Source of the DNA: Ascidia mentula
Taxonomy: Eukaryota; Chordata; Ascidiacea; Phlebobranchia; Ascidiidae
Assembly (NCBI GenBank): GCA_947561715.1
Contig: OX387197.1
Span: forward strand, 16,117,001 to 16,181,000
Reading direction: 5' to 3'
Length of the DNA stretch: 64,000 bases
Position 1 is the first letter of the stretch, and the number at the start of each line of letters is the position of its first letter. Made by a program: the position numbers and the translations under genes. Shown here piece after piece: positions 1 through 64,000 of this stretch. A model generated the notes under the pieces. It had not been told where the DNA came from and did no database searches. It saw only the letters and a list, made by a program, of their open reading frames with translations.

Positions 1-38
1 GCTTGGGGCTCGAAAAAAACAGAGTCCAGCCTATCCCA

Positions 39-81
39 CCCAGTCTTAACTTCGGCCCTATCTCGCCCATTGTTAAGTGGG
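39..81 (+). other. Inverted repeat inside A monomer (potential hairpin)
   Basis: cccagtcttaac (39-50) can pair with gttaagtggg (72-81). Six pairs form between cttaac and gttaag and four between ccca and tggg, with a two-base gt bulge on the left arm and a 21-base loop. The arms are kept in nearly all A copies, though some variants hit them, for example cttaacatcgg beside the left arm, cccaccaag within it, and gttaagttgg in the right arm. Function is unknown; the arrangement may simply be fixed by homogenisation. Confidence 0.6.
66..81 (+). other. 16-bp imperfect palindrome shared by A and B
   Basis: cccattgttaagtggg occurs once per monomer of either type (66-81 in A, 113-128 in B). Pairing the ends gives ccca/tggg, then a T-G and a T-A pair around a gtta loop. 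It is the most conserved element common to both monomers besides the A-run head, so it would suit a protein-binding site if the satellite has one. I do not recognise it as a known binding motif. Confidence 0.5.
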
Positions 82-87
82 TCGCGA
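82..87. other. tcgcga palindrome at A-to-next junctions
   Basis: The end of A (tcg) and the next head (cga) form tcgcga, the recognition sequence of NruI. It occurs in most A monomers and is lost as tggcga in the gtggcg variant. Together with ctcgaa (a TaqI site) at B-to-A junctions it gives regular CpG sites that a methylation or digestion assay would report. This is a descriptive landmark, not a proposed regulatory site. Confidence 0.7.
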
Positions 88-137
88 AAAAAACAGAGTC
101 CAGCCTATGTCTCCCATTGTTAAGTGGGCTTGGGGCT
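85..137 (+). repeat. Type B monomer (53 bp), reference copy
   Basis: The short monomer has the same 24-bp head as A (85-108), then gtct or gtcg (109-112), the shared motif cccattgttaagtggg (113-128) and a 9-bp tail, cttggggct. Common variants are cctggggctag and cttggggctag at the tail/next-head boundary, gttgg in place of gtggg, gtgagc in place of gtgggc, and ccaatg in place of cctatg. A and B normally alternate strictly. Confidence 0.95.
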
Positions 138-465
138 CGAAAAAAACAGAGTCCAGCCTATCCCACCCAGTCTTAACTTCGGCCCTATCTCGCCCATTGT
201 TAAGTGGGTCGCGAAAAAAACAGAGTCCAGCCTATGTCTCCCATTGTTAAGTGGGCTTTGGGCTCGAAAAAAACAGAGTCCAGCCTATCCCACCCAGTCT
301 TAACTTCGGCCCTATCTAGCCCATTGTTAAGTGGGTCGCGAAAAAAACAGAGTCCAGCCTATGTCTCCCATTGTTAAGTGGGCTTTGGGCTCGAAAAAAA
401 CAGAGTCCAGCCTATCCCACCCAGTCTTAACTTCGGCCCTATCTAGCCCATTGTTAAGTGGGTCG

Positions 466-571
466 CGAAAAAAAAAGAGTCCAGCCTATGTCTCCCATTG
501 TTAAGTTGGCTTGGGGCTCGAAAAAAACAGAGTCCAGCCAATGTCTCCCATTGTTAAGTGGGCTTGGGGCT
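466..571 (+). repeat. B-B doublet (two 53-bp monomers in a row)
   Basis: Two B monomers (466-518 and 519-571) are adjacent with no A between them. The first ends in the gttggcttggggct variant and the second carries ccaatg in place of cctatg. The ccaatg change nearly always marks the second B of such a doublet through the window, so it works as a tag. Later doublets with a gtatgg tail occur near 9,750, 11,760, 18,140, 22,760, 23,450, 27,960, 31,755, 33,450, 35,150, 36,720, 42,930 and 44,500. From 39.5 kb on there is also a ccaatgtcg/ccaatgtct pair. Each doublet adds 53 bp to the local higher-order period. Confidence 0.85.
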
Positions 572-1281
572 CGAAAAAAACAGAGTCCAGCCTATCCCAC
601 CCAGTCTTTACTTCGGCCCTATCTAGCCCATTGTTAAGTGGGTGGCGAAAAAAACAGAGTTCAGCCTATGTCTCCCATTGTTAAGTGGGCTTGGGGCTAG
701 AAAAAAAACAGAGTCCAGCCTATCTCACCCAGTCTTAACTTCGGCCCTATCTCGCCCATTGTTAAGTGGGTCGCGAAAAAAACAGAGTCCAGCCTATGTC
801 TCCCATTGTTAAGTGGGCTTGGGGCTCGAAAAAAACAGAGTCCAGCCTATCCCACCCAGTCTTAACTTCGGCCCTATCTCGCCCATTGTTAAGTGGGTCG
901 CGAAACAAACAGAGTCCAGCCTATGTCGCCCATTGTTAAGTGGGCTTGGGGCTCGAAAAAAACGGAGTCCAGCCTATCCCACCCAGTCTTAACTTCGGCC
1001 CTATCTAGCCCATTGTTAAGTGGGTGGCGAAAAAAACAGAGTTCAGCCTATGTCTCCCATTGTTAAGTGGGCTTGGGGCTCGAAAAAAACAGAGTCCAGC
1101 CTATCCCACCCAGTCTTAACTTCGGCCCTATCTCGCCCATTGTTAAGTGGGTCGCGAAAAAAACAGAGTCCAGCCTATGTCGCCCATTGTTAAGTGGGCT
1201 TGGGGCTCGAAAAAAACAGAGTCCAGCCTATCCCACCCAGTCTTAACTTCGGCCCTATCTAGCCCATTGTTAAGTGGGTCG

Positions 1282-1348
1282 CGATAAAAACAGCCTATCC
1301 CACCCAGTCTTAACTTCGGCCCTACCTAGCCCATTGTTAAGTGGGTCG
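1282..1348 (+). repeat. Type A' monomer (67 bp), first of 41 copies located
   Basis: A' begins cgataaaaacagcctat: an A monomer with a 7-bp deletion in the head and an a-to-t change in the A-run. It follows a complete A directly, so it marks a break in the A-B alternation. Copies start at 1282, 3308, 5588, 7510, 11118, 14193, 17494, 19500, 20838, 21286, 21861, 25209, 27056, 28626, 31235, 32424, 34122, 35693, 38789, 40052, 41899, 43596, 47073, 48336, 48911, 49486, 51130, 51705, 53805, 55068, 55262, 56398, 56973, 57548, 59065, 59640, 60903, 61351, 61545, 62120 and 63563. Density is much higher in the last 17 kb than in the first 20 kb. Confidence 0.93.
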
Positions 1349-1647
1349 CGAAAAAAACAGAGTCCAGCCTATGTCGCCCATTGTTAAGTGGGCTTGGGGC
1401 TCGAAAAAAACAGAGTCCAGCCTATCCCACCCAGTCTTAACTTCGGCCCTATCTAGCCCATTGTTAAGTGGGTCGCGAAAAAAACAGAGTCCAGCCTATG
1501 TCTCCCATTGTTAAGTGGGCTTGGGGCTCGAAAAAAACAGAGTCCAGCCTATCCCACCCAGTCTTAACTTCGGCCCTATCTCGCCCATTGTTAAGTGGGT
1601 CGCGAAAAAAACAGAGTCCAGCCTATGTCTCCCATTGTTAAGTGGGC

Positions 1648-4600
1648 TTGGGGCTCGAAAAAAACAGAGTCCAGCCTATCCCACCCAGTCTTAACTTCGG
1701 CCCTATCTCGCCCATTGTTAAGTGGGTCGCGAAAAAAACAGAGTCCAGCCTATGTCTCCCATTGTTAAGTGGGCTTGGGGCTCGAAAAAAACAGAGTCCA
1801 GCCTATCCCACCCAGTCTTAACTTCGGCCCTATCTCGCCCATTGTTAAGTGGGTCGCGAAAAAAACAGAGTCCAGCCTATGTCTCCCATTGTTAAGTGGG
1901 CTTTGGGCTCGAAAAAAACAGAGTCCAGCCTATCCCACCCAGTCTTAACTTCGGCCCTATCTAGCCCATTGTTAAGTGGGTCGCGAAAAAAACAGAGTCC
2001 AGCCTATGTCTCCCATTGTTAAGTGGGCTTGGGGCTCGAAAAAAACAGAGTCCAGCCTATAACACCCAGTCTTAACTTCGGCCCTATTTCGCCCATTGTT
2101 AAGTGGGTCGCGAAAAAAACAGAGTCCAGCCTATGTCTCCCATTGTTAAGTGGGCTTGGGGCTCGAAAAAAACAGAGTCCAGCCTATAACACCCAGTCTT
2201 AACTTCGGCCCTATCTCGCCCATTGTTAAGTGGGTCGCGAAAAAAACAGAGTCCAGCCTATGTCTCCCATTGTTAAGTGGGCTTGGGGCTCGAAAAAAAC
2301 AGAGTCCAGCCTATCCCACCCAGTCTTAACTTCGGCCCTATCTAGCCCATTGTTAAGTGGGTCGCGAAAAAAACAGAGTCCAGCCTATGTCGCCCATTGT
2401 TAAGTGGGCTTGGGGCTCGAAAAAAACAGAGTCCAGCCTATCCCACCCAGTCTTAACTTCGGTCCTATCTCGCCCATTGTTAAGTGGGTCGCGAAAAAAA
2501 AAGAGTCCAGCCTATGTCTCCCATTGTTAAGTTGGCTTGGGGCTCGAAAAAAACAGAGTCCAGCCAATGTCTCCCATTGTTAAGTGGGCTTGGGGCTCGA
2601 AAAAAACAGAGTCCAGCCTATCCCACCCAGTCTTAACTTCGGCCCTATCTAGCCCATTGTTAAGTGGGTGGCGAAAAAAACAGAGTTCAGCCTATGTCTC
2701 CCATTGTTAAGTGGGCTTGGGGCTAGAAAAAAAACAGAGTCCAGCCTATCTCACCCAGTCTTAACTTCGGCCCTATCTCGCCCATTGTTAAGTGGGTCGC
2801 GAAAAAAACAGAGTCCAGCCTATGTCTCCCATTGTTAAGTGGGCTTGGGGCTCGAAAAAAACAGAGTCCAGCCTATCCCACCCAGTCTTAACTTCGGCCC
2901 TATCTCGCCCATTGTTAAGTGGGTCGCGAAACAAACAGAGTCCAGCCTATGTCGCCCATTGTTAAGTGGGCTTGGGGCTCGAAAAAAACGGAGTCCAGCC
3001 TATCCCACCCAGTCTTAACTTCGGCCCTATCTAGCCCATTGTTAAGTGGGTGGCGAAAAAAACAGAGTTCAGCCTATGTCTCCCATTGTTAAGTGGGCTT
3101 GGGGCTCGAAAAAAACAGAGTCCAGCCTATCCCACCCAGTCTTAACTTCGGCCCTATCTCGCCCATTGTTAAGTGGGTCGCGAAAAAAACAGAGTCCAGC
3201 CTATGTCGCCCATTGTTAAGTGGGCTTGGGGCTCGAAAAAAACAGAGTCCAGCCTATCCCACCCAGTCTTAACTTCGGCCCTATCTAGCCCATTGTTAAG
3301 TGGGTCGCGATAAAAACAGCCTATCCCACCCAGTCTTAACTTCGGCCCTACCTAGCCCATTGTTAAGTGGGTCGCGAAAAAAACAGAGTCCAGCCTATGT
3401 CGCCCATTGTTAAGTGGGCTTGGGGCTCGAAAAAAACAGAGTCCAGCCTATCCCACCCAGTCTTAACTTCGGCCCTATCTAGCCCATTGTTAAGTGGGTC
3501 GCGAAAAAAACAGAGTCCAGCCTATGTCTCCCATTGTTAAGTGGGCTTGGGGCTCGAAAAAAACAGAGTCCAGCCTATCCCACCCAGTCTTAACTTCGGC
3601 CCTATCTCGCCCATTGTTAAGTGGGTCGCGAAAAAAACAGAGTCCAGCCTATGTCTCCCATTGTTAAGTGAGCTTGGGGCTCGAAAAAAACAGAGTCCAG
3701 CCTATCCCACCCAGTCTTAACTTCGGCCCTATCTCGCCCATTGTTAAGTGGGTCGCGAAAAAAACAGAGTCCAGCCTATGTCTCCCATTGTTAAGTGGGC
3801 TTGGGGCTCAAAAAAAACAGAGTCCAGCCTATCCCACCCAGTCTTAACTTCGGCCCTATCTCGCCCATTGTTAAGTGGGTCGCGAAAAAAACAGAGTCCA
3901 GCCTATGTCTCCCATTGTTAAGTGGGCTTGGGGCTCGAAAAAAACAGAGTCCAGCCTATCCCACCCAGTCTTAACTTCGGCCCTATCTCGCCCATTGTTA
4001 AGTGGGTCGCGAAAAAAACAGAGTCCAGCCTATGTCTCCCATTGTTAAGTGGGCTTGGGGCTCGAAAAAAACAGAGTCCAGCCTATCCCACCCAGTCTTA
4101 ACTTCGGCCCTATCTCGCCCATTGTTAAGTGGGTCGCGAAAAAAACAGAGTCCAGCCTATGTCTCCCATTGTTAAGTGGGCTTTGGGCTCGAAAAAAACA
4201 GAGTCCAGCCTATCCCACCCAGTCTTAACTTCGGCCCTATCTAGCCCATTGTTAAGTGGGTCGCGAAAAAAACAGAGTCCAGCCTATGTCTCCCATTGTT
4301 AAGTGGGCTTGGGGCTCGAAAAAAACAGAGTCCAGCCTATAACACCCAGTCTTAACTTCGGCCCTATTTCGCCCATTGTTAAGTGGGTCGCGAAAAAAAC
4401 AGAGTCCAGCCTATGTCTCCCATTGTTAAGTGGGCTTGGGGCTCGAAAAAAACAGAGTCCAGCCTATAACACCCAGTCTTAACTTCGGCCCTATCTCGCC
4501 CATTGTTAAGTGGGTCGCGAAAAAAACAGAGTCCAGCCTATGTCTCCCATTGTTAAGTGGGCTTGGGGCTCGAAAAAAACAGAGTCCAGCCTATCCCACC

Positions 4601-6207
4601 CAGTCTTAACTTCGGTCCTATCTCGCCCATTGTTAAGTGGGTCGCGAAAAAAACAGAGTCCAGCCTATGTCGCCCATTGTTAAGTGGGCTTGGGGCTCGA
4701 AAAAAACAGAGTCCAGCCTATCCCACCCAGTCTTAACTTCGGTCCTATCTCGCCCATTGTTAAGTGGGTCGCGAAAAAAAAAGAGTCCAGCCTATGTCTC
4801 CCATTGTTAAGTTGGCTTGGGGCTCGAAAAAAACAGAGTCCAGCCAATGTCTCCCATTGTTAAGTGGGCTTGGGGCTCGAAAAAAACAGAGTCCAGCCTA
4901 TCCCACCCAGTCTTAACTTCGGCCCTATCTAGCCCATTGTTAAGTGGGTGGCGAAAAAAACAGAGTTCAGCCTATGTCTCCCATTGTTAAGTGGGCTTGG
5001 GGCTAGAAAAAAAACAGAGTCCAGCCTATCTCACCCAGTCTTAACTTCGGCCCTATCTCGCCCATTGTTAAGTGGGTCGCGAAAAAAACAGAGTCCAGCC
5101 TATGTCTCCCATTGTTAAGTGGGCTTGGGGCTCGAAAAAAACAGAGTCCAGCCTATCCCACCCAGTCTTAACTTCGGCCCTATCTCGCCCATTGTTAAGT
5201 GGGTCGCGAAACAAACAGAGTCCAGCCTATGTCGCCCATTGTTAAGTGGGCTTGGGGCTCGAAAAAAACGGAGTCCAGCCTATCCCACCCAGTCTTAACT
5301 TCGGCCCTATCTAGCCCATTGTTAAGTGGGTGGCGAAAAAAACAGAGTTCAGCCTATGTCTCCCATTGTTAAGTGGGCTTGGGGCTCGAAAAAAACAGAG
5401 TCCAGCCTATCCCACCCAGTCTTAACTTCGGCCCTATCTCGCCCATTGTTAAGTGGGTCGCGAAAAAAACAGAGTCCAGCCTATGTCGCCCATTGTTAAG
5501 TGGGCTTGGGGCTCGAAAAAAACAGAGTCCAGCCTATCCCACCCAGTCTTAACTTCGGCCCTATCTAGCCCATTGTTAAGTGGGTCGCGATAAAAACAGC
5601 CTATCCCACCCAGTCTTAACTTCGGCCCTACCTAGCCCATTGTTAAGTGGGTCGCGAAAAAAACAGAGTCCAGCCTATGTCGCCCATTGTTAAGTGGGCT
5701 TGGGGCTCGAAAAAAACAGAGTCCAGCCTATCCCACCCAGTCTTAACTTCGGCCCTATCTAGCCCATTGTTAAGTGGGTCGCGAAAAAAACAGAGTCCAG
5801 CCTATGTCTCCCATTGTTAAGTGGGCTTGGGGCTCGAAAAAAACAGAGTCCAGCCTATCCCACCCAGTCTTAACTTCGGCCCTATCTCGCCCATTGTTAA
5901 GTGGGTCGCGAAAAAAACAGAGTCCAGCCTATGTCTCCCATTGTTAAGTGAGCTTGGGGCTCGAAAAAAACAGAGTCCAGCCTATCCCACCCAGTCTTAA
6001 CTTCGGCCCTATCTCGCCCATTGTTAAGTGGGTCGCGAAAAAAACAGAGTCCAGCCTATGTCTCCCATTGTTAAGTGGGCTTGGGGCTCAAAAAAAACAG
6101 AGTCCAGCCTATCCCACCCAGTCTTAACTTCGGCCCTATCTCGCCCATTGTTAAGTGGGTCGCGAAAAAAACAGAGTCCAGCCTATGTCTCCCATTGTTA
6201 AGTGGGC
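1648..6207 (+). repeat. Two tandem copies of a 2,280-bp higher-order repeat
   Basis: Copies about 1648-3927 and 3928-6207. Matching markers at offset 2,280 are ctttgggctc (1901/4181), ctataacaccc (about 2059/4339), the altered head lacking cag after the A-run (gcg at 2491/4771), A' (3307/5587), gtgagc (about 3671/5951) and ggctcaaaa (about 3808/6088). A related copy to the left (465-1645) matches 2491-3671 at offset 2,026, which is 2,280 minus two 127-bp units. Confidence 0.85.
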
Positions 6208-8668: not shown

Positions 8669-11600
8669 CGAAAAAAAACAGAGTCCAGCCTATGTCTCCC
8701 ATTGTTAAGTGGGCTTGGGGCTCGAAAAAAACAGAGTCCAGCCTATCCCACCCAGTCTTAACTTCGGCCCTATCTCGCCCATTGTTAAGTGGGTCGCGAA
8801 AAAAACAGAGTCCAGCCTATGTCTCCCATTGTTAAGTGGGCTTTGGGCTCGAAAAAAACAGAGTCCAGCCTATCCCACCCAGTCTTAACTTCGGCCCTAT
8901 CTAGCCCATTGTTAAGTGGGTCGCGAAAAAAACAGAGTCCAGCCTATGTCTCCCATTGTTAAGTGGGCTTGGGGCTCGAAAAAAACAGAGTCCAGCCTAT
9001 AACACCCAGTCTTAACTTCGGCCCTATTTCGCCCATTGTTAAGTGGGTCGCGAAAAAAACAGAGTCCAGCCTATGTCTCCCATTGTTAAGTGGGCTTGGG
9101 GCTCGAAAAAAACAGAGTCCAGCCTATAACACCCAGTCTTAACTTCGGCCCTATCTCGCCCATTGTTAAGTGGGTCGCGAAAAAAACAGAGTCCAGCCTA
9201 TGTCTCCCATTGTTAAGTGGGCTTGGGGCTCGAAAAAAACAGAGTCCAGCCTATCCCACCCAGTCTTAACTTCGGCCCTATCTCGCCCATTGTTAAGTGG
9301 GTCGCGAAAAAAAACAGAGTCCAGCCTATGTCTCCCATTGTTAAGTGGGCTTGGGGCTCGAAAAAAACAGAGTCCAGCCCATCCCACCCAGTCTTAACTT
9401 CGGCCCTATCTCGCCCATTGTTAAGTGGGTCGCGAAAAAAACAGAGTCCAGCCTATGTCGCCCATTGTTAAGTGGGCTTGGGGCTCGAAAAAAACAGAGT
9501 CCAGCCTATCCCACCCAGTCTTAACTTCGGCCCTATCTAGCCCATTGTTAAGTGGGTCGCGAAAAAAACAGAGTCCAGCCTATGTCGCCCATTGTTAAGT
9601 GGGCTTGGGGCTCGAAAAAAACAGAGTCCAGCCTATCCCACCCAGTCTTAACTTCGGCCCTATCTCGCCCATTGTTAAGTGGGTCGCGAAAAAAACAGAG
9701 TCCAGCCTATGTCTCCCATTGTTAAGTGGGCTTGGGGCTCGAAAAAAACAGAGTCCAGCCAATGTCTCCCATTGTTAAGTGGGTATGGGGCTCGAAAAAA
9801 ACAGAGTCCAGCCTATCCCACCCAGTCTTAACTTCGGCCCTATCTAGCCCATTGTTAAGTGGGTCGCGAAAAAAACAGAGTCCAGCCTATGTCGCCCATT
9901 GTTAAGTGGGCTTGGGGCTCGAAAAAAACAGAGTCCAGCCTATCCCACCCAGTCTTAACTTCGGCCCTATCTCGCCCATTGTTAAGTGGGTCGCGAAAAA
10001 AACAGAGTCCAGCCTATGTCTCCCATTGTTAAGTTGGCTTGGGGCTCGAAAAAAACAGAGTCCAGCCAATGTCTCCCATTGTTAAGTGGGCTTGGGGCTC
10101 GAAAAAAACAGAGTCCAGCCTATCCCACCCAGTCTTAACTTCGGCCCTATCTAGCCCATTGTTAAGTGGGTGGCGAAAAAAACAGAGTTCAGCCTATGTC
10201 TCCCATTGTTAAGTGGGCTTGGGGCTAGAAAAAAAACAGAGTCCAGCCTATCTCACCCAGTCTTAACTTCGGCCCTATCTCGCCCATTGTTAAGTGGGTC
10301 GCGAAAAAAACAGAGTCCAGCCTATGTCTCCCATTGTTAAGTTGGCTTGGGGCTCGAAAAAAACAGAGTCCAGCCAATGTCTCCCATTGTTAAGTGGGCT
10401 TGGGGCTCGAAAAAAACAGAGTCCAGCCTATCCCACCCAGTCTTAACTTCGGCCCTATCTAGCCCATTGTTAAGTGGGTGGCGAAAAAAACAGAGTTCAG
10501 CCTATGTCTCCCATTGTTAAGTGGGCTTGGGGCTAGAAAAAAAACAGAGTCCAGCCTATCTCACCCAGTCTTAACTTCGGCCCTATCTCGCCCATTGTTA
10601 AGTGGGTCGCGAAAAAAACAGAGTCCAGCCTATGTCGCCCATTGTTAAGTGGGCTTGGGGCTCGAAAAAAACGGAGTCCAGCCTATCCCACCCAGTCTTA
10701 ACTTCGGCCCTATCTAGCCCATTGTTAAGTGGGTGGCGAAAAAAACAGAGTTCAGCCTATGTCTCCCATTGTTAAGTGGGCTTGGGGCACGAAAAAAACA
10801 GAGTCCAGCCTATCCCACCCAGTCTTAACTTCGGCCCTATCTCGCCCATTGTTAAGTGGGTCGCGAAAAAAACAGAGTCCAGCCTATGTCTCCCATTGTT
10901 AAGTGGGCTTGGGGCTCGAAAAAAACAGAGTCCAGCCTATCCCACCCAGTCTTAACTTCGGCCCTATCTCGCCCATTGTTAAGTGGGTCGCGAAAAAAAC
11001 AGAGTCCAGCCTATGTCGCCCATTGTTAAGTGGGCTTGGGGCTCGAAAAAAACAGAGTCCAGCCTATCCCACCCAGTCTTAACTTCGGCCCTATCTAGCC
11101 CATTGTTAAGTGGGTCGCGATAAAAACAGCCTATCCCACCCAGTCTTAACTTCGGCCCTATCTAGCCCATTGTTAAGTGGGTCGCGAAAAAAACAGAGTC
11201 CAGCCTATGTCTCCCATTGTTAAGTGGGCTTGGGGCTCGAAAAAAACAGAGTCCAGCCTATCCCACCCAGTCTTAACTTCGGCCCTATCTCGACCATTGT
11301 TAAGTGGGTCGCGAAAAAAACAGAGTCCAGCCTATGTCTCCCATTGTTAAGTGGGCCTGGGGCTAGAAAAAAACAGAGTCCAGCCTATCCCACCCAGTCT
11401 TAACTTCGGCCCTATCTAGCCCATTGTTAAGTGGGTCGCGAAAAAAACAGAGTCCAGCCTATGTCTCCCATTGTTAAGTGGGCTTGGGGCTCGAAAAAAA
11501 CAGAGTCCAGCCTATCCCACCCAGTCTTAACTTCGGCCCTATCTCGCCCATTGTTAAGTGGGTCGCGAAAAAAACAGAGTCCAGCCTATGTCTCCCATTG

Positions 11601-12485
11601 TTAAGTGAGCTTGGGGCTCGAAAAAAACAGAGTCCAGCCTATCCCACCCAGTCTTAACTTCGGCCCTATCTCGCCCATTGTTAAGTGGGTCGCGAAAAAA
11701 ACAGAGTCCAGCCTATGTCTCCCATTGTTAAGTGGGCTTGGGGCTCGAAAAAAACAGAGTCCAGCCAATGTCTCCCATTGTTAAGTGGGTATGGGGCTCG
11801 AAAAAAACAGAGTCCAGCCTATCCCACCCAGTCTTAACTTCGGCCCTATCTAGCCCATTGTTAAGTGGGTCGCGAAAAAAACAGAGTCCAGCCTATGTCG
11901 CCCATTGTTAAGTGGGCTTGGGGCTCGAAAAAAACAGAGTCCAGCCTATCCCACCCAGTCTTAACTTCGGCCCTATCTCGCCCATTGTTAAGTGGGTCGC
12001 GAAAAAAACAGAGTCCAGCCTATGTCTCCCATTGTTAAGTTGGCTTGGGGCTCGAAAAAAACAGAGTCCAGCCAATGTCTCCCATTGTTAAGTGGGCTTG
12101 GGGCTCGAAAAAAACAGAGTCCAGCCTATCCCACCCAGTCTTAACTTCGGCCCTATCTAGCCCATTGTTAAGTGGGTGGCGAAAAAAACAGAGTTCAGCC
12201 TATGTCTCCCATTGTTAAGTGGGCTTGGGGCTAGAAAAAAAACAGAGTCCAGCCTATCTCACCCAGTCTTAACTTCGGCCCTATCTCGCCCATTGTTAAG
12301 TGGGTCGCGAAAAAAACAGAGTCCAGCCTATGTCTCCCATTGTTAAGTTGGCTTGGGGCTCGAAAAAAACAGAGTCCAGCCAATGTCTCCCATTGTTAAG
12401 TGGGCTTGGGGCTCGAAAAAAACAGAGTCCAGCCTATCCCACCCAGTCTTAACTTCGGCCCTATCTAGCCCATTGTTAAGTGGGT
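6747..12485 (+). repeat. 5.7-kb segmental duplication, left copy
   Basis: Positions 6747-9727 match 13430-16410 at offset 6,683, and 10035-12485 match 16411-18861 at offset 6,376. Shared markers include A' at 7509/14192 and 11117/17493, the A-A doublet, tagged B doublets and the ctcgacc variant. The left copy has 307 bp (two dimers plus one B) that the right copy lacks. A few single-base differences exist, for example ccagcctatg versus ccagtctatg near 16,007. Confidence 0.85.
8581..9045 (+). repeat. About 465-bp cassette that recurs outside its home domain
   Basis: The ordered run of variants (eight-A head, ctttggg tail, ctag A, ataacaccc A with ttcg linker) is repeated at about 15,264-15,728, 25,824-26,288, 30,003-30,467, 40,794-41,130 (one dimer shorter), 45,968-46,432 and 52,700-53,164. 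In the five copies right of 25 kb, the sequence switches straight after the ttcg A to a gttcag B with a ctag tail, whereas the 9-kb copy continues with a normal gtccag B. Confidence 0.75.
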
Positions 12486-13429: not shown

Positions 13430-16400
13430 CGAAAAAAACAGAGTCCAGCCAATGTCTCCCATTGTTAAGTGGGCTTGGGGCTCGAAAAAAACAGAGTCCA
13501 GCCTATCCCACCCAGTCTTAACTTCGGCCCTATCTAGCCCATTGTTAAGTGGGTGGCGAAAAAAACAGAGTTCAGCCTATGTCTCCCATTGTTAAGTGGG
13601 CTTGGGGCTAGAAAAAAAACAGAGTCCAGCCTATCTCACCCAGTCTTAACTTCGGCCCTATCTCGCCCATTGTTAAGTGGGTCGCGAAAAAAACAGAGTC
13701 CAGCCTATGTCTCCCATTGTTAAGTGGGCTTGGGGCTCGAAAAAAACAGAGTCCAGCCTATCCCACCCAGTCTTAACTTCGGCCCTATCTCGCCCATTGT
13801 TAAGTGGGTCGCGAAACAAACAGAGTCCAGCCTATGTCGCCCATTGTTAAGTGGGCTTGGGGCTCGAAAAAAACGGAGTCCAGCCTATCCCACCCAGTCT
13901 TAACTTCGGCCCTATCTAGCCCATTGTTAAGTGGGTGGCGAAAAAAACAGAGTTCAGCCTATGTCTCCCATTGTTAAGTGGGCTTGGGGCTCGAAAAAAA
14001 CAGAGTCCAGCCTATCCCACCCAGTCTTAACTTCGGCCCTATCTCGCCCATTGTTAAGTGGGTCGCGAAAAAAACAGAGTCCAGCCTATGTCGCCCATTG
14101 TTAAGTGGGCTTGGGGCTCGAAAAAAACAGAGTCCAGCCTATCCCACCCAGTCTTAACTTCGGCCCTATCTAGCCCATTGTTAAGTGGGTCGCGATAAAA
14201 ACAGCCTATCCCACCCAGTCTTAACTTCGGCCCTACCTAGCCCATTGTTAAGTGGGTCGCGAAAAAAACAGAGTCCAGCCTATGTCGCCCATTGTTAAGT
14301 GGGCTTGGGGCTCGAAAAAAACAGAGTCCAGCCTATCCCACCCAGTCTTAACTTCGGCCCTATCTAGCCCATTGTTAAGTGGGTCGCGAAAAAAACAGAG
14401 TCCAGCCTATGTCTCCCATTGTTAAGTGGGCTTGGGGCTCGAAAAAAACAGAGTCCAGCCTATCCCACCCAGTCTTAACTTCGGCCCTATCTCGCCCATT
14501 GTTAAGTGGGTCGCGAAAAAAACAGAGTCCAGCCTATGTCTCCCATTGTTAAGTGAGCTTGGGGCTCGAAAAAAACAGAGTCCAGCCTATCCCACCCAGT
14601 CTTAACTTCGGCCCTATCTCGCCCATTGTTAAGTGGGTCGCGAAAAAAACAGAGTCCAGCCTATGTCTCCCATTGTTAAGTGGGCTTGGGGCTCAAAAAA
14701 AACAGAGTCCAGCCTATCCCACCCAGTCTTAACTTCGGCCCTATCTCGCCCATTGTTAAGTGGGTCGCGAAAAAAACAGAGTCCAGCCTATGTCTCCCAT
14801 TGTTAAGTGGGCTTTGGGCTCGAAAAAAACAGAGTCCAGCCTATCCCACCCAGTCTTAACTTCGGCCCTATCTAGCCCATTGTTAAGTGGGTCGCGAAAA
14901 AAACAAGAGTCCAGCCTATGTCTCCCATTGTTAAGTGGGCTTGGGGCTCGAAAAAAACAGAGTCCAGCCTATAACACCCAGTCTTAACTTCGGCCCTATT
15001 TCGCCCATTGTTAAGTGGGTCGCGAAAAAAACAGAGTCCAGCCTATGTCTCCCATTGTTAAGTGGGCTTGGGGCTCGAAAAAAACAGAGTCCAGCCTATC
15101 CCACCCAGTCTTAACTTCGGCCCTATCTCGCCCATTGTTAAGTGGGTCGCGAAAAAAAACAGAGTCCAGCCTATCCCACCCAGTCTTAACTTCGGCCCTA
15201 TCTCGCCCATTGTTAAGTTGGTCGCGAAAAAAACAGAGTCCAGCCTATGTCTCCCATTGTTAAGTGGGCTTGGGGCTCGAAAAAAACAGAGTCCAGCCTA
15301 TCCCACCCAGTCTTAACTTCGGCCCTATCTCGCCCATTGTTAAGTGGGTCGCGAAAAAAAACAGAGTCCAGCCTATGTCTCCCATTGTTAAGTGGGCTTG
15401 GGGCTCGAAAAAAACAGAGTCCAGCCTATCCCACCCAGTCTTAACTTCGGCCCTATCTCGCCCATTGTTAAGTGGGTCGCGAAAAAAACAGAGTCCAGCC
15501 TATGTCTCCCATTGTTAAGTGGGCTTTGGGCTCGAAAAAAACAGAGTCCAGCCTATCCCACCCAGTCTTAACTTCGGCCCTATCTAGCCCATTGTTAAGT
15601 GGGTCGCGAAAAAAACAGAGTCCAGCCTATGTCTCCCATTGTTAAGTGGGCTTGGGGCTCGAAAAAAACAGAGTCCAGCCTATAACACCCAGTCTTAACT
15701 TCGGCCCTATTTCGCCCATTGTTAAGTGGGTCGCGAAAAAAACAGAGTCCAGCCTATGTCTCCCATTGTTAAGTGGGCTTGGGGCTCGAAAAAAACAGAG
15801 TCCAGCCTATAACACCCAGTCTTAACTTCGGCCCTATCTCGCCCATTGTTAAGTGGGTCGCGAAAAAAACAGAGTCCAGCCTATGTCTCCCATTGTTAAG
15901 TGGGCTTGGGGCTCGAAAAAAACAGAGTCCAGCCTATCCCACCCAGTCTTAACTTCGGCCCTATCTCGCCCATTGTTAAGTGGGTCGCGAAAAAAAACAG
16001 AGTCCAGTCTATGTCTCCCATTGTTAAGTGGGCTTGGGGCTCGAAAAAAACAGAGTCCAGCCCATCCCACCCAGTCTTAACTTCGGCCCTATCTCGCCCA
16101 TTGTTAAGTGGGTCGCGAAAAAAACAGAGTCCAGCCTATGTCGCCCATTGTTAAGTGGGCTTGGGGCTCGAAAAAAACAGAGTCCAGCCTATCCCACCCA
16201 GTCTTAACTTCGGCCCTATCTAGCCCATTGTTAAGTGGGTCGCGAAAAAAACAGAGTCCAGCCTATGTCGCCCATTGTTAAGTGGGCTTGGGGCTCGAAA
16301 AAAACAGAGTCCAGCCTATCCCACCCAGTCTTAACTTCGGCCCTATCTCGCCCATTGTTAAGTGGGTCGCGAAAAAAACAGAGTCCAGCCTATGTCTCCC

Positions 16401-18861
16401 ATTGTTAAGTTGGCTTGGGGCTCGAAAAAAACAGAGTCCAGCCAATGTCTCCCATTGTTAAGTGGGCTTGGGGCTCGAAAAAAACAGAGTCCAGCCTATC
16501 CCACCCAGTCTTAACTTCGGCCCTATCTAGCCCATTGTTAAGTGGGTGGCGAAAAAAACAGAGTTCAGCCTATGTCTCCCATTGTTAAGTGGGCTTGGGG
16601 CTAGAAAAAAAACAGAGTCCAGCCTATCTCACCCAGTCTTAACTTCGGCCCTATCTCGCCCATTGTTAAGTGGGTCGCGAAAAAAACAGAGTCCAGCCTA
16701 TGTCTCCCATTGTTAAGTTGGCTTGGGGCTCGAAAAAAACAGAGTCCAGCCAATGTCTCCCATTGTTAAGTGGGCTTGGGGCTCGAAAAAAACAGAGTCC
16801 AGCCTATCCCACCCAGTCTTAACTTCGGCCCTATCTAGCCCATTGTTAAGTGGGTGGCGAAAAAAACAGAGTTCAGCCTATGTCTCCCATTGTTAAGTGG
16901 GCTTGGGGCTAGAAAAAAAACAGAGTCCAGCCTATCTCACCCAGTCTTAACTTCGGCCCTATCTCGCCCATTGTTAAGTGGGTCGCGAAAAAAACAGAGT
17001 CCAGCCTATGTCGCCCATTGTTAAGTGGGCTTGGGGCTCGAAAAAAACGGAGTCCAGCCTATCCCACCCAGTCTTAACTTCGGCCCTATCTAGCCCATTG
17101 TTAAGTGGGTGGCGAAAAAAACAGAGTTCAGCCTATGTCTCCCATTGTTAAGTGGGCTTGGGGCACGAAAAAAACAGAGTCCAGCCTATCCCACCCAGTC
17201 TTAACTTCGGCCCTATCTCGCCCATTGTTAAGTGGGTCGCGAAAAAAACAGAGTCCAGCCTATGTCTCCCATTGTTAAGTGGGCTTGGGGCTCGAAAAAA
17301 ACAGAGTCCAGCCTATCCCACCCAGTCTTAACTTCGGCCCTATCTCGCCCATTGTTAAGTGGGTCGCGAAAAAAACAGAGTCCAGCCTATGTCGCCCATT
17401 GTTAAGTGGGCTTGGGGCTCGAAAAAAACAGAGTCCAGCCTATCCCACCCAGTCTTAACTTCGGCCCTATCTAGCCCATTGTTAAGTGGGTCGCGATAAA
17501 AACAGCCTATCCCACCCAGTCTTAACTTCGGCCCTATCTAGCCCATTGTTAAGTGGGTCGCGAAAAAAACAGAGTCCAGCCTATGTCTCCCATTGTTAAG
17601 TGGGCTTGGGGCTCGAAAAAAACAGAGTCCAGCCTATCCCACCCAGTCTTAACTTCGGCCCTATCTCGACCATTGTTAAGTGGGTCGCGAAAAAAACAGA
17701 GTCCAGCCTATGTCTCCCATTGTTAAGTGGGCCTGGGGCTAGAAAAAAACAGAGTCCAGCCTATCCCACCCAGTCTTAACTTCGGCCCTATCTAGCCCAT
17801 TGTTAAGTGGGTCGCGAAAAAAACAGAGTCCAGCCTATGTCTCCCATTGTTAAGTGGGCTTGGGGCTCGAAAAAAACAGAGTCCAGCCTATCCCACCCAG
17901 TCTTAACTTCGGCCCTATCTCGCCCATTGTTAAGTGGGTCGCGAAAAAAACAGAGTCCAGCCTATGTCTCCCATTGTTAAGTGAGCTTGGGGCTCGAAAA
18001 AAACAGAGTCCAGCCTATCCCACCCAGTCTTAACTTCGGCCCTATCTCGCCCATTGTTAAGTGGGTCGCGAAAAAAACAGAGTCCAGCCTATGTCTCCCA
18101 TTGTTAAGTGGGCTTGGGGCTCGAAAAAAACAGAGTCCAGCCAATGTCTCCCATTGTTAAGTGGGTATGGGGCTCGAAAAAAACAGAGTCCAGCCTATCC
18201 CACCCAGTCTTAACTTCGGCCCTATCTAGCCCATTGTTAAGTGGGTCGCGAAAAAAACAGAGTCCAGCCTATGTCGCCCATTGTTAAGTGGGCTTGGGGC
18301 TCGAAAAAAACAGAGTCCAGCCTATCCCACCCAGTCTTAACTTCGGCCCTATCTCGCCCATTGTTAAGTGGGTCGCGAAAAAAACAGAGTCCAGCCTATG
18401 TCTCCCATTGTTAAGTTGGCTTGGGGCTCGAAAAAAACAGAGTCCAGCCAATGTCTCCCATTGTTAAGTGGGCTTGGGGCTCGAAAAAAACAGAGTCCAG
18501 CCTATCCCACCCAGTCTTAACTTCGGCCCTATCTAGCCCATTGTTAAGTGGGTGGCGAAAAAAACAGAGTTCAGCCTATGTCTCCCATTGTTAAGTGGGC
18601 TTGGGGCTAGAAAAAAAACAGAGTCCAGCCTATCTCACCCAGTCTTAACTTCGGCCCTATCTCGCCCATTGTTAAGTGGGTCGCGAAAAAAACAGAGTCC
18701 AGCCTATGTCTCCCATTGTTAAGTTGGCTTGGGGCTCGAAAAAAACAGAGTCCAGCCAATGTCTCCCATTGTTAAGTGGGCTTGGGGCTCGAAAAAAACA
18801 GAGTCCAGCCTATCCCACCCAGTCTTAACTTCGGCCCTATCTAGCCCATTGTTAAGTGGGT
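13430..18861 (+). repeat. 5.7-kb segmental duplication, right copy (307 bp shorter)
   Basis: Partner of the 6,747-12,485 block. The missing 307 bp would lie at 16,410/16,411. Immediately upstream (about 13.0-13.43 kb) the sequence instead matches the region before 4.8 kb, with the cag-less head at gcg 13376 corresponding to 4771. So the right copy reflects the arrangement without the 1,922-bp tandem duplication seen on the left. Confidence 0.82.
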
Positions 18862-29432: not shown

Positions 29433-29450
29433 TAGCCCATTGTTAAGTGG

Positions 29451-48400: not shown

Positions 48401-48528
48401 CGCGAAAAAAACAGAGTCCAGCCTATGTCGCCCATTGTTAAGTGGGCTTGGGGCTCGAAAAAAACAGAGTCCAGCCTATCCCACCCAGTCTTAACTTCGG
48501 CCCTATCTAGCCCATTGTTAAGTGGGTG
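45425..48528 (+). repeat. 3.1-kb segmental duplication (partner at 52,157-55,260)
   Basis: At offset 6,732 the markers ggccatatctag (about 45,647/52,379), gaaataaac (about 45,931/52,663), A' (47072/53804 and 48335/55067), gaaagaaac (about 47,776/54,508) and taacatcgg all coincide. The match stops where one side has gtggcg and the other a second A'. Part of it (gaaataaac, ggccatatc) also matches the 37.8-38.4 kb region at offset 7,649. Confidence 0.8.
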
Positions 48529-51500: not shown

Positions 51501-52150
51501 GCTCGAAAAAAACAGAGTCCAGCCTATCCCACCCAGTCTTAACTTCGGCCCTATCTCGCCCATTGTTAAGTGGGTCGCGAAAAAAACAGAGTCCAGCCTA
51601 TGTCGCCCATTGTTAAGTGGGCTTGGGGCTCGAAAAAAACAGAGTCCAGCCTATCCCACCCAGTCTTAACTTCGGCCCTATCTAGCCCATTGTTAAGTGG
51701 GTCGCGATAAAAACAGCCTATCCCACCCAGTCTTAACTTCGGCCCTATCTAGCCCATTGTTAAGTGGGTCGCGAAAAAAACAGAGTCCAGCCTATGTCGC
51801 CCATTGTTAAGTGGGCTTGGGGCTCGAAAAAAACAGAGTCCAGCCTATCCCACCCAGTCTTAACTTCGGCCCTATCTCGCCCATTGTTAAGTGGGTCGCG
51901 AAAAAAACAGGGTCCAGCCTATGTCTCCCATTGTTAAGTGGGCCTGGGGCTAGAAAAAAACAGAGTCCAGCCTATCCCACCCAGTCTTAACTTCGGCCCT
52001 ATCTAGCCCATTGTTAAGTGGGTCGCGAAAAAAACAGAGTCCAGCCTATGTCTCCCATTGTTAAGTGGGCTTGGGGCTCGAAAAAAACAGAGTCCAGCCT
52101 ATCCCACCCAGTCTTAACTTCGGCCCTATCTCGCCCATTGTTAAGTGGGT
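47270..52150 (+). repeat. 4.9-kb segmental duplication (partner at about 55,330-60,090)
   Basis: Offset 8,062 holds for A' at 48335, 48910 and 49485 and for the rare ccaacctatg variant (48,800/56,862). After one dimer is lost in the right copy the offset becomes 7,935, for A' at 51129 and 51704, ccaatg at 50207 and gtgagc at about 50,789. Divergence begins near 52,150/60,085. Two private changes in the left copy (cagggtcc near 51,910 and gttgccc near 52,180) lie at its end. Confidence 0.8.
48336..49485 (+). repeat. Two tandem 575-bp higher-order repeats (9 monomers each)
   Basis: 48336-48910 and 48911-49485. Each is A' followed by four B-A pairs (67+4x127 = 575). The same period occurs in tandem at 56398-57547 and singly at 21286-21860, 51130-51704, 59065-59639 and 61545-62119. 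Compared with the 1,263-bp repeat, it lacks 688 bp (five A and six B) right after the first B. 448 and 194 bp spacings elsewhere are the same repeat short of one and three dimers. Confidence 0.85.
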
Positions 52151-59064: not shown

Positions 59065-62000
59065 CGATAAAAACAGCCTATCCCACCCAGTCTTAACATC
59101 GGCCCTATCTAGCCCATTGTTAAGTGGGTCGCGAAAAAAACAGAGTCCAGCCTATGTCGCCCATTGTTAAGTGGGCTTGGGGCTCGAAAAAAACAGAGTC
59201 CAGCCTATCCCACCCAGTCTTAACTTCGGCCCTATCTAGCCCATTGTTAAGTGGGTGGCGAAAAAAACAGAGTTCAGCCTATGTCTCCCATTGTTAAGTG
59301 GGCTTGGGGCTAGAAAAAAACAGAGTCCAGCCTATCCCACCCAGTCTTAACTTCGGCCCTATCTCGCCCATTGTTAAGTGGGTCGCGAAAAAAACAGAGT
59401 CCAGCCTATGTCTCCCATTGTTAAGTGGGCTTGGGGCTCGAAAAAAACAGAGTCCAGCCTATCCCACCCAGTCTTAACTTCGGCCCTATCTCGCCCATTG
59501 TTAAGTGGGTCGCGAAAAAAACAGAGTCCAGCCTATGTCGCCCATTGTTAAGTGGGCTTGGGGCTCGAAAAAAACAGAGTCCAGCCTATCCCACCCAGTC
59601 TTAACTTCGGCCCTATCTAGCCCATTGTTAAGTGGGTCGCGATAAAAACAGCCTATCCCACCCAGTCTTAACTTCGGCCCTATCTAGCCCATTGTTAAGT
59701 GGGTCGCGAAAAAAACAGAGTCCAGCCTATGTCGCCCATTGTTAAGTGGGCTTGGGGCTCGAAAAAAACAGAGTCCAGCCTATCCCACCCAGTCTTAACT
59801 TCGGCCCTATCTCGCCCATTGTTAAGTGGGTCGCGAAAAAAACAGAGTCCAGCCTATGTCTCCCATTGTTAAGTGGGCCTGGGGCTAGAAAAAAACAGAG
59901 TCCAGCCTATCCCACCCAGTCTTAACTTCGGCCCTATCTAGCCCATTGTTAAGTGGGTCGCGAAAAAAACAGAGTCCAGCCTATGTCTCCCATTGTTAAG
60001 TGGGCTTGGGGCTCGAAAAAAACAGAGTCCAGCCTATCCCACCCAGTCTTAACTTCGGCCCTATCTCGCCCATTGTTAAGTGGGTCGCGAAAAAAACAGA
60101 GTCCAGCCTATGTCTCCCATTGTTAAGTGAGCTTGGGGCTCGAAAAAAACAGAGTCCAGCCTATCCCACCCAGTCTTAACTTCGGCCCTATCTCGCCCAT
60201 TGTTAAGTGGGTCGCGAAAAAAACAGAGTCCAGCCTATGTCTCCCATTGTTAAGTGGGCTTGGGGCTCGAAAAAAACAGAGTCCAGCCTATCCCACCCAG
60301 TCTTAACTTCGGCCCTATCTCGCCCATTGTTAAGTGGGTCGCGAAAAAAACAGAGTCCAGCCAATGTCGCCCATTGTTAAGTGGGCTTGGGGCTCGAAAA
60401 AAACAGAGTCCAGCCAATGTCTCCCATTGTTAAGTGGGCTTGGGGCTCGAAAAAAACAGAGTCCAGCCTATCCCACCCAGTCTTAACTTCGGCCCTATCT
60501 AGCCCATTGTTAAGTGGGTGGCGAAAAAAACAGAGTTCAGCCTATGTCTCCCATTGTTAAGTGGGCTTGGGGCTAGAAAAAAACAGAGTCCAGCCTATCC
60601 CACCCAGTCTTAACTTCGGCCCTATCTCGCCCATTGTTAAGTGGGTCGCGAAAAAAACAGAGTCCAGCCTATGTCTCCCATTGTTAAGTGGGCTTGGGGC
60701 TCGAAAAAAACAGAGTCCAGCCTATCCCACCCAGTCTTAACTTCGGCCCTATCTCGCCCATTGTTAAGTGGGTCGCGAAAAAAACAGAGTCCAGCCTATG
60801 TCGCCCATTGTTAAGTGGGCTTGGGGCTCGAAAAAAACAGAGTCCAGCCTATCCCACCCAGTCTTAACTTCGGCCCTATCTAGCCCATTGTTAAGTGGGT
60901 CGCGATAAAAACAGCCTATCCCACCCAGTCTTAACATCGGCCCTATCTAGCCCATTGTTAAGTGGGTCGCGAAAAAAACAGAGTCCAGCCTATGTCGCCC
61001 ATTGTTAAGTGGGCTTGGGGCTCGAAAAAAACAGAGTCCAGCCTATCCCACCCAGTCTTAACTTCGGCCCTATCTCGCCCATTGTTAAGTGGGTCGCGAA
61101 AAAAACAGAGTCCAGCCTATGTCTCCCATTGTTAAGTGGGCCTGGGGCTAGAAAAAAACAGAGTCCAGCCTATCCCACCCAGTCTAAACTTCGGCCCTAT
61201 CTAGCCCATTGTTAAGTGGGTCGCGAAAAAAACAGAGTCCAGCCTATGTCTCCCATTGTTAAGTGGGCTTGGGGCTCGAAAAAAACAGAGTCCAGCCTAT
61301 CCCACCCAGTCTTAACTTCGGCCCTATCTAGCCCATTGTTAAGTGGGTCGCGATAAAAACAGCCTATCCCACCCAGTCTTAACATCGGCCCTATCTAGCC
61401 CATTGTTAAGTGGGTCGCGAAAAAAACAGAGTCCAGCCTATGTCTCCCATTGTTAAGTGGGCTTGGGGCTCGAAAAAAACAGAGTCCAGCCTATCCCACC
61501 CAGTCTTAACTTCGGCCCTATCTCGCCCATTGTTAAGTGGGTCGCGATAAAAACAGCCTATCCCACCCAGTCTTAACATCGGCCCTATCTAGCCCATTGT
61601 TAAGTGGGTCGCGAAAAAAACAGAGTCCAGCCTATGTCGCCCATTGTTAAGTGGGCTTGGGGCTCGAAAAAAACAGAGTCCAGCCTATCCCACCCAGTCT
61701 TAACTTCGGCCCTATCTAGCCCATTGTTAAGTGGGTGGCGAAAAAAACAGAGTTCAGCCTATGTCTCCCATTGTTAAGTGGGCTTGGGGCTAGAAAAAAA
61801 CAGAGTCCAGCCTATCCCACCCAGTCTTAACTTCGGCCCTATCTCGCCCATTGTTAAGTGGGTCGCGAAAAAAACAGAGTCCAGCCTATGTCTCCCATTG
61901 TTAAGTGGGCTTGGGGCTCGAAAAAAACAGAGTCCAGCCTATCCCACCCAGTCTTAACTTCGGCCCTATCTCGCCCATTGTTAAGTGGGTCGCGAAAAAA

Positions 62001-63340
62001 ACAGAGTCCAGCCTATGTCGCCCATTGTTAAGTGGGCTTGGGGCTCGAAAAAAACAGAGTCCAGCCTATCCCACCCAGTCTTAACTTCGGCCCTATCTAG
62101 CCCATTGTTAAGTGGGTCGCGATAAAAACAGCCTATCCCACCCAGTCTTAACTTCGGCCCTATCTAGCCCATTGTTAAGTGGGTCGCGAAAAAAACAGAG
62201 TCCAGCCTATGTCGCCCATTGTTAAGTGGGCTTGGGGCTCGAAAAAAACAGAGTCCAGCCTATCCCACCCAGTCTTAACTTCGGCCCTATCTCGCCCATT
62301 GTTAAGTGGGTCGCGAAAAAAACAGAGTCCAGCCTATGTCTCCCATTGTTAAGTGGGCCTGGGGCTAGAAAAAAACAGAGTCCAGCCTATCCCACCCAGT
62401 CTTAACTTCGGCCCTATCTAGCCCATTGTTAAGTGGGTCGCGAAAAAAACAGAGTCCAGCCTATGTCTCCCATTGTTAAGTGGGCTTGGGGCTCGAAAAA
62501 AACAGAGTCCAGCCTATCCCACCCAGTCTTAACTTCGGCCCTATCTCGCCCATTGTTAAGTGGGTCGCGAAAAAAACAGAGTCCAGCCTATGTCTCCCAT
62601 TGTTAAGTGAGCTTGGGGCTCGAAAAAAACAGAGTCCAGCCTATCCCACCCAGTCTTAACTTCGGCCCTATCTCGCCCATTGTTAAGTGGGTCGCGAAAA
62701 AAACAGAGTCCAGCCTATGTCTCCCATTGTTAAGTGGGCTTGGGGCTCGAAAAAAACAGAGTCCAGCCTATCCCACCCAGTCTTAACTTCGGCCCTATCT
62801 CGCCCATTGTTAAGTGGGTCGCGAAAAAAACAGAGTCCAGCCAATGTCGCCCATTGTTAAGTGGGCTTGGGGCTCGAAAAAAACAGAGTCCAGCCAATGT
62901 CTCCCATTGTTAAGTGGGCTTGGGGCTCGAAAAAAACAGAGTCCAGCCTATCCCACCCAGTCTTAACTTCGGCCCTATCTAGCCCATTGTTAAGTGGGTG
63001 GCGAAAAAAACAGAGTTCAGCCTATGTCTCCCATTGTTAAGTGGGCTTGGGGCTAGAAAAAAACAGAGTCCAGCCTATCCCACCCAGTCTTAACTTCGGC
63101 CCTATCTCGCCCATTGTTAAGTGGGTCGCGAAAAAAACAGAGTCCAGCCTATGTCTCCCATTGTTAAGTGGGCTTGGGGCTCGAAAAAAACAGAGTCCAG
63201 CCTATCCCACCCAGTCTTAACTTCGGCCCTATCTCGCCCATTGTTAAGTGGGTCGCGAAAAAAACAGAGTCCAGCCTATGTCGCCCATTGTTAAGTGGGC
63301 TTGGGGCTCGAAAAAAACAGAGTCCAGCCTATCCCACCCA
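59065..63340 (+). repeat. 2,480-bp tandem duplication
   Basis: 59,065-60,860 matches 61,545-63,340. A' at 59064/61544 and 59639/62119, gtgagc near 60,128/62,608 and the ccaatgtcg doublet at 60361/62841 share the offset. The middle (60.9-61.5 kb) has closely spaced A' copies at 60903, 61351 and 61545. The right copy then diverges with a ctcgacc A and a second ccaatg doublet. Confidence 0.78.
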
Positions 63341-63809
63341 GTCTTAACTTCGGCCCTATCTCGACCATTGTTAAGTGGGTCGCGAAAAAAACAGAGTCCA
63401 GCCAATGTCGCCCATTGTTAAGTGGGCTTGGGGCTCGAAAAAAACAGAGTCCAGCCAATGTCTCCCATTGTTAAGTGGGCTTGGGGCTCGAAAAAAACAG
63501 AGTCCAGCCTATCCCACCCATTCTTAACTTCGGCCCTATCTAGCCCATTGTTAAGTGGGTCGCGATAAAAACAGCCTATCCCACCCAGTCTTAACTTCGG
63601 CCCTATCTAGCCCATTGTTAAGTGGGTCGCGAAAAAAACAGAGTCCAGCCTATGTCTCCCATTGTTAAGTGGGCTTGGGGCTCGAAAAAAACAGAGTCCA
63701 GCCTATCCCACCCAGTCTTAACTTCGGCCCTATCTCGCCCATTGTTAAGTGGGTCGCGAAAAAAACAGAGTCCAGCCTATGTCGCCCATTGTTAAGTGGG
63801 CTTGGGGCT

Positions 63810-63957
63810 CGAAAAAAACAGAGTCCAGCCTATCCCACCCAGTCTTAACTTCGGCCCTATCTAGCCCATTGTTAAGTGGGTCGCGAAAAAAACAGAGTCC
63901 AGCCTATCCCACCCAGTCTTAACTTCGGCCCTATCTCGCCCATTGTTAAGTGGGTCG
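63810..63957 (+). repeat. A-A doublet without the A' deletion, near right edge
   Basis: An A monomer ending near 63,883 is followed by another complete 74-bp A (63884-63957) with a normal seven-A run and an intact head. This is the structure expected for an ancestor of the A-A' pair, or for an independent loss of one B. It lies outside the A-A doublet family of the 6-15 kb region. Confidence 0.8.
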
Positions 63958-64000
63958 CGAAAAAAACAGAGTCCAGCCTATGTCTCCCATTGTTAAGTGG

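What the first reader, a model, noticed from the sequence alone, without database searches (positions are those of the whole stretch)
1..64000. Unrecognised 127-bp dimeric satellite (74+53 bp) filling at least 64 kb
The array has no interruption, no inversion and no inserted transposon in about 500 dimers, and I cannot assign the unit to a named satellite family. A strict alternation of two unequal monomers that share head and core is a clear, describable architecture. Uninterrupted homogeneity is typical of a young or actively homogenised array. A centromeric role is possible but is only inference.
Basis: partly seen in the sequence, partly recalled or inferred. Interest (0 to 1): 0.7.

Follow-up and report, generated by a model that had tools for sequence, protein, structure and literature searches.

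The report
Chromosome-specific satellite repeat in sea squirt
A two-megabase block of an apparently undescribed 127-base repeat sits on one chromosome of the sea squirt Ascidia mentula; it is ordinary satellite DNA and probably not the centromere, because a different repeat was found in one region on every chromosome.

Summary
The window is a 127-bp tandem satellite throughout, as reported, but it does not alternate strictly: 85 of 1005 core-to-core steps break the A-B order. The host contig is 27,920,005 bp, exactly the longest published scaffold of the ascidian Ascidia mentula, and COX1 reads with the ascidian code; so this is chromosome 1. Samples put the array at about 15.43-17.50 Mb, with orientation switches and insertions outside the window. 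A fully listed rare-variant probe has 68 of 68 hits on chromosome 1. Spliced-leader RNA gene arrays flank and interrupt the block. Sampling exposed an unrelated AT-rich 138-bp satellite, found in one region on each of nine chromosomes, including 12.50-13.10 Mb on chromosome 1, about 2.3 Mb away. By distribution that repeat is the centromere candidate; the 127-bp repeat is a chromosome-1-specific, probably heterochromatic satellite. I found neither described in the held library. New member of a known kind, modest interest; the 138-bp repeat is the better lead.

The parts
1..64000 (+). 127-bp dimeric satellite array, uninterrupted in the window; part of a block of about 2.07 Mb on chromosome 1
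   Evidence: 99.7% covered by common 12-mers, one orientation; longest uncovered run 7 bp; period 127
2..29 (+). Module L2 of the first dimer (CTTGGGGCTCG-A7-CAGAGTCCAG), 28 bp
   Evidence: sequence; module split
30..56 (+). Module M1 of the first dimer, 27 bp, a diverged copy of M2/M3
57..81 (+). Module M2 of the first dimer, 25 bp, with core CCCATTGTTAAGTGGG
82..103 (+). Module L1 of the first dimer (TCGCG-A7-CAGAGTCCAG), 22 bp
104..128 (+). Module M3 of the first dimer, 25 bp
459..592 (+). Example of broken alternation: consecutive 53-bp B monomers
   Evidence: Tandem Repeats Finder period 53, 2.5 copies; 40 such steps in the window
1224..1360 (+). Example of broken alternation: A followed by A through a 67-bp step (linker short by 7 bp)
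   Evidence: Tandem Repeats Finder period 67, 2.0 copies; 41 such steps in the window; their sequences
9786..12485 (+). 2,700-bp segment repeated without a difference at 16162-18861
   Evidence: longest exact direct repeat in the window
16162..18861 (+). Second copy of the 2,700-bp exact repeat

Best explanation
This is a chromosome-1-specific satellite family of the ascidian Ascidia mentula. Shown by sampling: a block of about 2.07 Mb of 127-bp dimers in both orientations, flanked on the left and interrupted by spliced-leader RNA gene arrays, about 2.3 Mb from the chromosome-1 array of a 138-bp satellite that is found on all nine chromosomes. Inferred: it arose when a 53-bp unit (M+L) gained a second, now diverged M module, giving a 74-bp unit. 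The pair then spread by unequal sister-chromatid exchange or a similar recombination process, which explains the kilobase-scale exact copies and the out-of-register joins (BB, AA). Inversions and insertions followed. It most likely codes for nothing and is packed as constitutive heterochromatin; it is probably not the kinetochore site.
For: Tandem structure. Extent and orientation. Chromosome-1 specificity: 68 of 68 hits of a fully listed probe; 0 of 50 readable grid samples on chromosome 9. Exact repeats up to 2,700 bp and out-of-register joins fit unequal exchange. Longest stop-free stretch in the window 102 codons. Unrelated 138-bp satellite in one region on nine of nine chromosomes. Module similarity.
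Against: No chromatin, cytological or expression data. Centromeres can be epigenetic and chromosome-specific, so distribution alone does not settle function. The genome copy held is 195.84 Mb against 196.98 Mb published, and some stretches read N. Exact or near-exact probes cannot see strongly diverged relatives on other chromosomes. Divergence is higher at one edge (2.7-4.0% in three samples of 300-500 bp at 17.3-17.5 Mb, against 0.4-2.8% in the others), which resembles layered centromere expansion. The Rfam scan is weak evidence against an RNA role: it gave 0 matches although two of its loci (L009, L022) hold many SL RNA genes.
Confidence: 0.78

Rival explanations
1. The 127-bp block is the functional centromere of chromosome 1, a chromosome-specific centromeric satellite, while the 138-bp array on that chromosome is inactive.
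For: It is a large homogeneous array inside chromosome 1 (15.43-17.50 of 27.92 Mb) and larger than the sampled span of the 138-bp array there (about 0.6 Mb).
Against: Chromosome 1 carries the 138-bp satellite found on all nine chromosomes. Close copies of the 127-bp repeat were not found on any other chromosome. No CENP-B-box-like motif in the window (0 matches); this is weak, since the 138-bp sample L066 has none either.
Confidence: 0.12
2. The block is heterochromatin that grew as part of the spliced-leader RNA locus and helps keep that gene array in place or homogeneous.
For: SL gene arrays lie left of the block (listed copies from 15.24 Mb, samples to 15.415 Mb) and inside it (samples from 15.985 to 16.03 Mb). 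At about 16.0368 Mb satellite follows SL-repeat sequence directly in L023.
Against: No local match between the 127-bp unit and the SL loci searched. On the left, the sample at 15.430 Mb is neither SL repeat nor satellite, so contact there is not shown. The right flank sampled at 17.525, 17.550 and 17.575 Mb has no SL repeat. Adjacency of tandem arrays may only reflect low recombination.
Confidence: 0.1
3. The apparent array is largely an assembly artefact.
For: Megabase satellites are hard to assemble, and samples at 16.62, 16.64 and 16.66 Mb read N in the copy held, as withheld sequence or a gap.
Against: The published assembly used 74-fold HiFi reads with QV 64.9. The window has no N. Monomer order and variants are irregular rather than one collapsed or expanded unit.
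Confidence: 0.03

Closest known systems
Chromosome-specific and pericentromeric satellite DNAs of animals and plants (general class, from general knowledge; listing seen only)
   Same: Megabase tandem array, short unit, local homogenisation, inversions, insertions, close copies on one chromosome
   Different: Sequence matched nothing found here; the modular M-M-L-M-L unit is particular to this family
Primate alpha satellite (recalled, not compared by sequence)
   Same: Related but distinct monomers in a multi-monomer unit
   Different: No regular higher-order repeat seen: ungapped identity falls from 127 to 254, 381 and 508 bp. Close copies on one chromosome only. No CENP-B-box-like motif
138-bp AT-rich satellite of the same genome (found here)
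   Same: Tandem, large, in both orientations
   Different: Unrelated sequence (longest shared match 8 bp, in an A run), 35% against 50% GC, one region on each of nine chromosomes
Ciona SL RNA gene clusters (PMC6836712 passages and section 20; PMC7986045 passages)
   Same: The same 16-nt leader ATTCTATTTGAATAAG in a clustered gene array; this array neighbours the satellite and is not the satellite itself
   Different: Here a unit of about 719 bp holds two SL genes about 284 and 435 bp apart, one with leader ATTCTGTTTGAATAAG

Membership tests
Satellite DNA | Long head-to-tail array of a non-coding unit | tested here: met
   longest stop-free stretch in the window 102 codons
Satellite DNA | Evidence of concerted evolution or homogenisation | tested here: met
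   1.3% mean divergence over 376 of 412 dimers; exact repeats up to 2,700 bp
Karyotype-wide centromeric satellite | Present at one site on every chromosome | tested here: not met
   68 of 68 hits of a fully listed probe on chromosome 1; 0 of 50 readable grid samples on chromosome 9; the 138-bp repeat meets this instead. Strongly diverged copies would be missed
Karyotype-wide centromeric satellite | CENP-A (CENH3) chromatin | not testable with these tools
   needs ChIP or CUT&RUN
Alpha-satellite-like higher-order repeat | Regular multi-monomer unit more alike than its monomers | tested here: not met
   identity falls from 0.82 at 127 to 0.70, 0.60 and 0.50 at 254, 381 and 508 bp (ungapped, so indels add to the fall); monomer order irregular
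CENP-B-box satellite | NTTCGNNNNANNCGGGN in some units (motif recalled) | tested here: not met
   0 matches on both strands of the window
Spliced-leader RNA gene array | Contains the SL sequence | tested here: not met
   0 copies of ATTTGAATAAG on both strands of the window

The most novel reading that the evidence does not exclude
Chromosome 1 may carry two centromere-competent satellite blocks about 2.3 Mb apart: the general 138-bp array and a chromosome-private 127-bp array that is a nascent, shifted or relic centromere lodged beside the spliced-leader RNA locus. That would catch centromere replacement in progress in an invertebrate chordate.
Probability: 0.08. Interest if true: 0.7.

Novelty: new member of a known kind. 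Interest (0 to 1): 0.35.

Why it matters
The satellite itself is a routine kind of sequence, although its assembled 2-Mb block shows unit evolution and array inversion in detail. The larger value lies in the comparison it forced: a separate 138-bp repeat in one region on every chromosome is a concrete centromere candidate for an ascidian. The searches made here found no earlier description of one (listings), and the Oikopleura telomere-to-telomere paper says that its authors could not find centromeric high-copy tandem repeats in that tunicate (PMC8008620, passages). The neighbouring spliced-leader RNA arrays are assembled on a chromosome, whereas in Ciona those clusters are only partly placed.

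Tried and rejected
Centromere reading of the 127-bp repeat: considered first because of the internal position and size, and set aside after the 138-bp repeat was found. Regular higher-order repeat: not seen. CENP-B box: none. Strong single-strand folding of the unit: not above shuffles (z -0.57). Origin from the SL repeat or from the sampled SL island: no local match; hits to L014 and L015, which contain the satellite, were filtered out of that listing. Known RNA family: none at gathering score in the window plus five loci, but this scan also missed the SL RNA genes in L009 and L022. Viral contigs: no exact match to a 23-mer (that collection may leave out this genome). Folding of two SL RNA stretches was not clearly above shuffles (z -1.25 and 0.44). 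Incomplete maps: probes had 198, 446 and 260 hits, of which only the first 100 are listed, all on C1. The SL probe has 1,661 hits, of which the first 100 are listed (C1, 15.24-15.33 Mb); two SL variant probes found 1 copy, on C71, and 0 copies, so most SL copies remain unplaced. The SSU rRNA search did not complete and was dropped once COX1 succeeded. The tandem-repeat survey PMC4053949 holds no mention of tunicates by the six words tried.

Full report
Observation. The window is a single-orientation tandem array. 12-mers seen at least 20 times in the window cover 99.7% of it, with no reverse-strand coverage, and the longest stretch not so covered is 7 bp. The ungapped shift identity is 0.82 at 127 bp, 0.70 at 254, 0.60 at 381 and 0.50 at 508, so 127 bp is the repeat unit and no regular higher-order repeat is seen. 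The 74- and 53-bp monomers are real, but their alternation is broken in 85 of 1005 core-to-core steps: 40 B-B, 41 A-A through a 67-bp step whose linker is 7 bp short, and 4 A-A of 74/75 bp; five further spacings of 127 bp are cores that the anchor missed. The 376 dimers of exactly 127 bp (of 412 found) differ from their consensus by 1.3% on average. Exact direct repeats reach 2,700 bp.

Unit anatomy. The dimer reads M1-M2-L1-M3-L2. The M modules share CCTAT and a CCCA-TTAA-GG pattern, and the L modules share CG-A7-CAGAGTCCAG. For each of the four module pairs tested, none of 5,000 single-letter shuffles reached the observed score. The 74-bp monomer can be read as the 53-bp monomer with one extra, diverged M module. 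This history is inference.

Host. G000 has 195,842,439 bases in 79 contigs and the window is C1:16117001-16181000. COX1 on contig C79 carries five TGA codons, and of the four codes tried (4, 5, 9, 13) only the ascidian mitochondrial code, with AGR as glycine, gives glycines at places where I recall COX1 having them. C1 is 27,920,005 bp, identical to the longest scaffold of the published Ascidia mentula assembly kaAscMent1.1 (PMC11109543, first of three parts of the text read). Eight further contig lengths (C2, C52, C67, C69-C73) agree with its chromosome table within 0.01 Mb. The window therefore lies on A. mentula chromosome 1.

Extent. Sampling puts the left edge between 15.430 and 15.433 Mb and the right edge between 17.500 and 17.525 Mb, about 2.07 Mb. 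Orientation switches at 15.485 and 15.502 Mb. In the samples and listed probe hits, the reverse strand is seen from 15.55 to 15.98 Mb and from about 16.81 Mb to the right edge, and the forward strand from 16.037 to 16.80 Mb, with reverse hits at 16.624-16.627 Mb. Interruptions include 1,056 bp at 15.672 Mb, at least 973 bp at 15.700 Mb, a readable non-satellite sample at 16.65 Mb, and an island from about 15.985 to 16.037 Mb with SL gene repeats and a reverse-transcriptase ORF scoring just below Pfam's cut-offs. Substitution rates against the window consensus are 0.4-2.8% in samples from 15.44 to 17.1 Mb and 2.7-4.0% in the three samples at 17.3-17.5 Mb (33 loci, those over 4 kb cut to 4 kb, plus five window segments; 16 of the 33 were of only 300-500 bp).

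Distribution. A 38-bp core occurs 7,332 times exactly in the genome. A rarer 27-mer variant, whose full list is shown, has 68 of 68 hits on C1 between 15.48 and 17.13 Mb. Three other probes gave lists cut at 100 places, all on C1, so they are weaker support. None of these probes would see strongly diverged relatives.

A better centromere candidate. I sampled chromosome 9 (C73) at 52 points of 300 bp, of which 50 were readable. None held the 127-bp satellite. Two, together with one earlier sample at 7.00 Mb, held a different 138-bp tandem repeat of about 35% GC at 6.88-7.18 Mb. A DNA search put that repeat on C73, C52, C69 and C1 (40 of 340 candidates scored). A rare-variant probe gave 46 hits, all listed, on eight contigs and in one region on each: C1 6, C2 1, C67 8, C69 1, C70 4, C71 3, C72 5, C73 18. 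C52 completes nine of nine chromosomes. Being a rare variant, the probe could miss small secondary arrays. Direct sampling at chosen places found the repeat in 16 of 20 further stretches, with at least one on every chromosome. On chromosome 1 the positive samples run from 12.50 to 13.10 Mb, with one negative sample at 12.60 Mb and negatives at 12.40 and 13.60 Mb; a sample at 11.50 Mb on C71 was also negative. The two units share nothing beyond an 8-bp match in an A run. A repeat in one region on every chromosome is what a centromeric satellite is expected to look like, and the 127-bp repeat does not fit that. CENP-A data are needed to prove it.

Neighbours. The 719-bp repeat beside and inside the block contains ATTCTATTTGAATAAG followed by GTAAG, and a second copy with ATTCTGTTTGAATAAG. 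The first is the 16-nt Ciona spliced leader (PMC7986045, passages read). The genome has 1,661 exact copies of a 25-mer with that leader (first 100 listed). For Ciona the literature gives at least 670 copies, of which the reference genome holds at most 15; [quoted passage not shown]

Mechanism. The kilobase-scale exact repeats and out-of-register joins fit unequal exchange or a similar recombination-driven amplification. With no stop-free stretch longer than 102 codons in the window a coding role is unlikely. The Rfam scan found no known RNA, but it also missed the SL RNA genes, so it says little. Heterochromatin packaging is inferred from what is generally known of satellites and was not tested.

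Literature. Searches for the repeat length, and for tunicate or ascidian satellites and centromeres, returned no paper that describes either repeat, judged from search listings and abstract starts. Of the papers listed I looked by word into two: the Oikopleura assembly paper, which reports no centromeric tandem repeats found (PMC8008620, passages), and the tandem-repeat survey PMC4053949, which mentions no tunicate by the six words tried. The library holds open-licence PMC papers only, so this is not proof of absence from print. One search was a general search on chromosome-specific satellites, of which I saw the listing only.

Noticed in passing
C73 6.79-7.24 Mb (L066, L100, L101, L157); C1 12.50-13.10 Mb (L139, L141-L145); one region each on C2, C52, C67, C69, C70, C71, C72: An unrelated AT-rich 138-bp satellite found in one region on each of the nine A. 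mentula chromosomes is the best centromere candidate by sequence distribution.
   Followed up: partly
C1 from 15.24 to about 15.415 Mb and 15.985-16.03 Mb (L009, L022, L023, L047, L056, L058, L136): Spliced-leader RNA gene arrays in a 719-bp unit with two SL genes per unit flank and interrupt the satellite; 1,661 exact 25-mer SL copies genome-wide, nearly equal on both strands (832 and 829), most of them not placed; one variant copy is on C71 at 12.92 Mb.
   Followed up: partly
L009 (27 SL genes): Two leader variants occur about equally, ATTCTATTTGAATAAG (13) and ATTCTGTTTGAATAAG (14), whereas Ciona is reported to use a single SL; whether the second is used is unknown.
   Followed up: no
L014 (15671833-15672888) and L015 (15700001-15700973) on C1: Two similar-looking AT-rich insertions of about 1 kb, with internal TTTTGTTTCGAAAACAAATTTTG-like repeats, interrupt the satellite; family not identified.
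   Followed up: no
L022 7956-9344 (-) and L022 55-993 (+): A LINE-like ORF with reverse-transcriptase and zf-RVT matches just below Pfam's cut-offs, and another ORF without a Pfam match at E up to 0.001, inside the SL island.
   Followed up: partly
window, tracts of 6 to 9 A: Spacings between successive A tracts are mainly 53 and 74 bp (464 and 385 of 956), close to 5 and 7 helical turns, so the tracts may bend the DNA in phase; not tested further.
   Followed up: no
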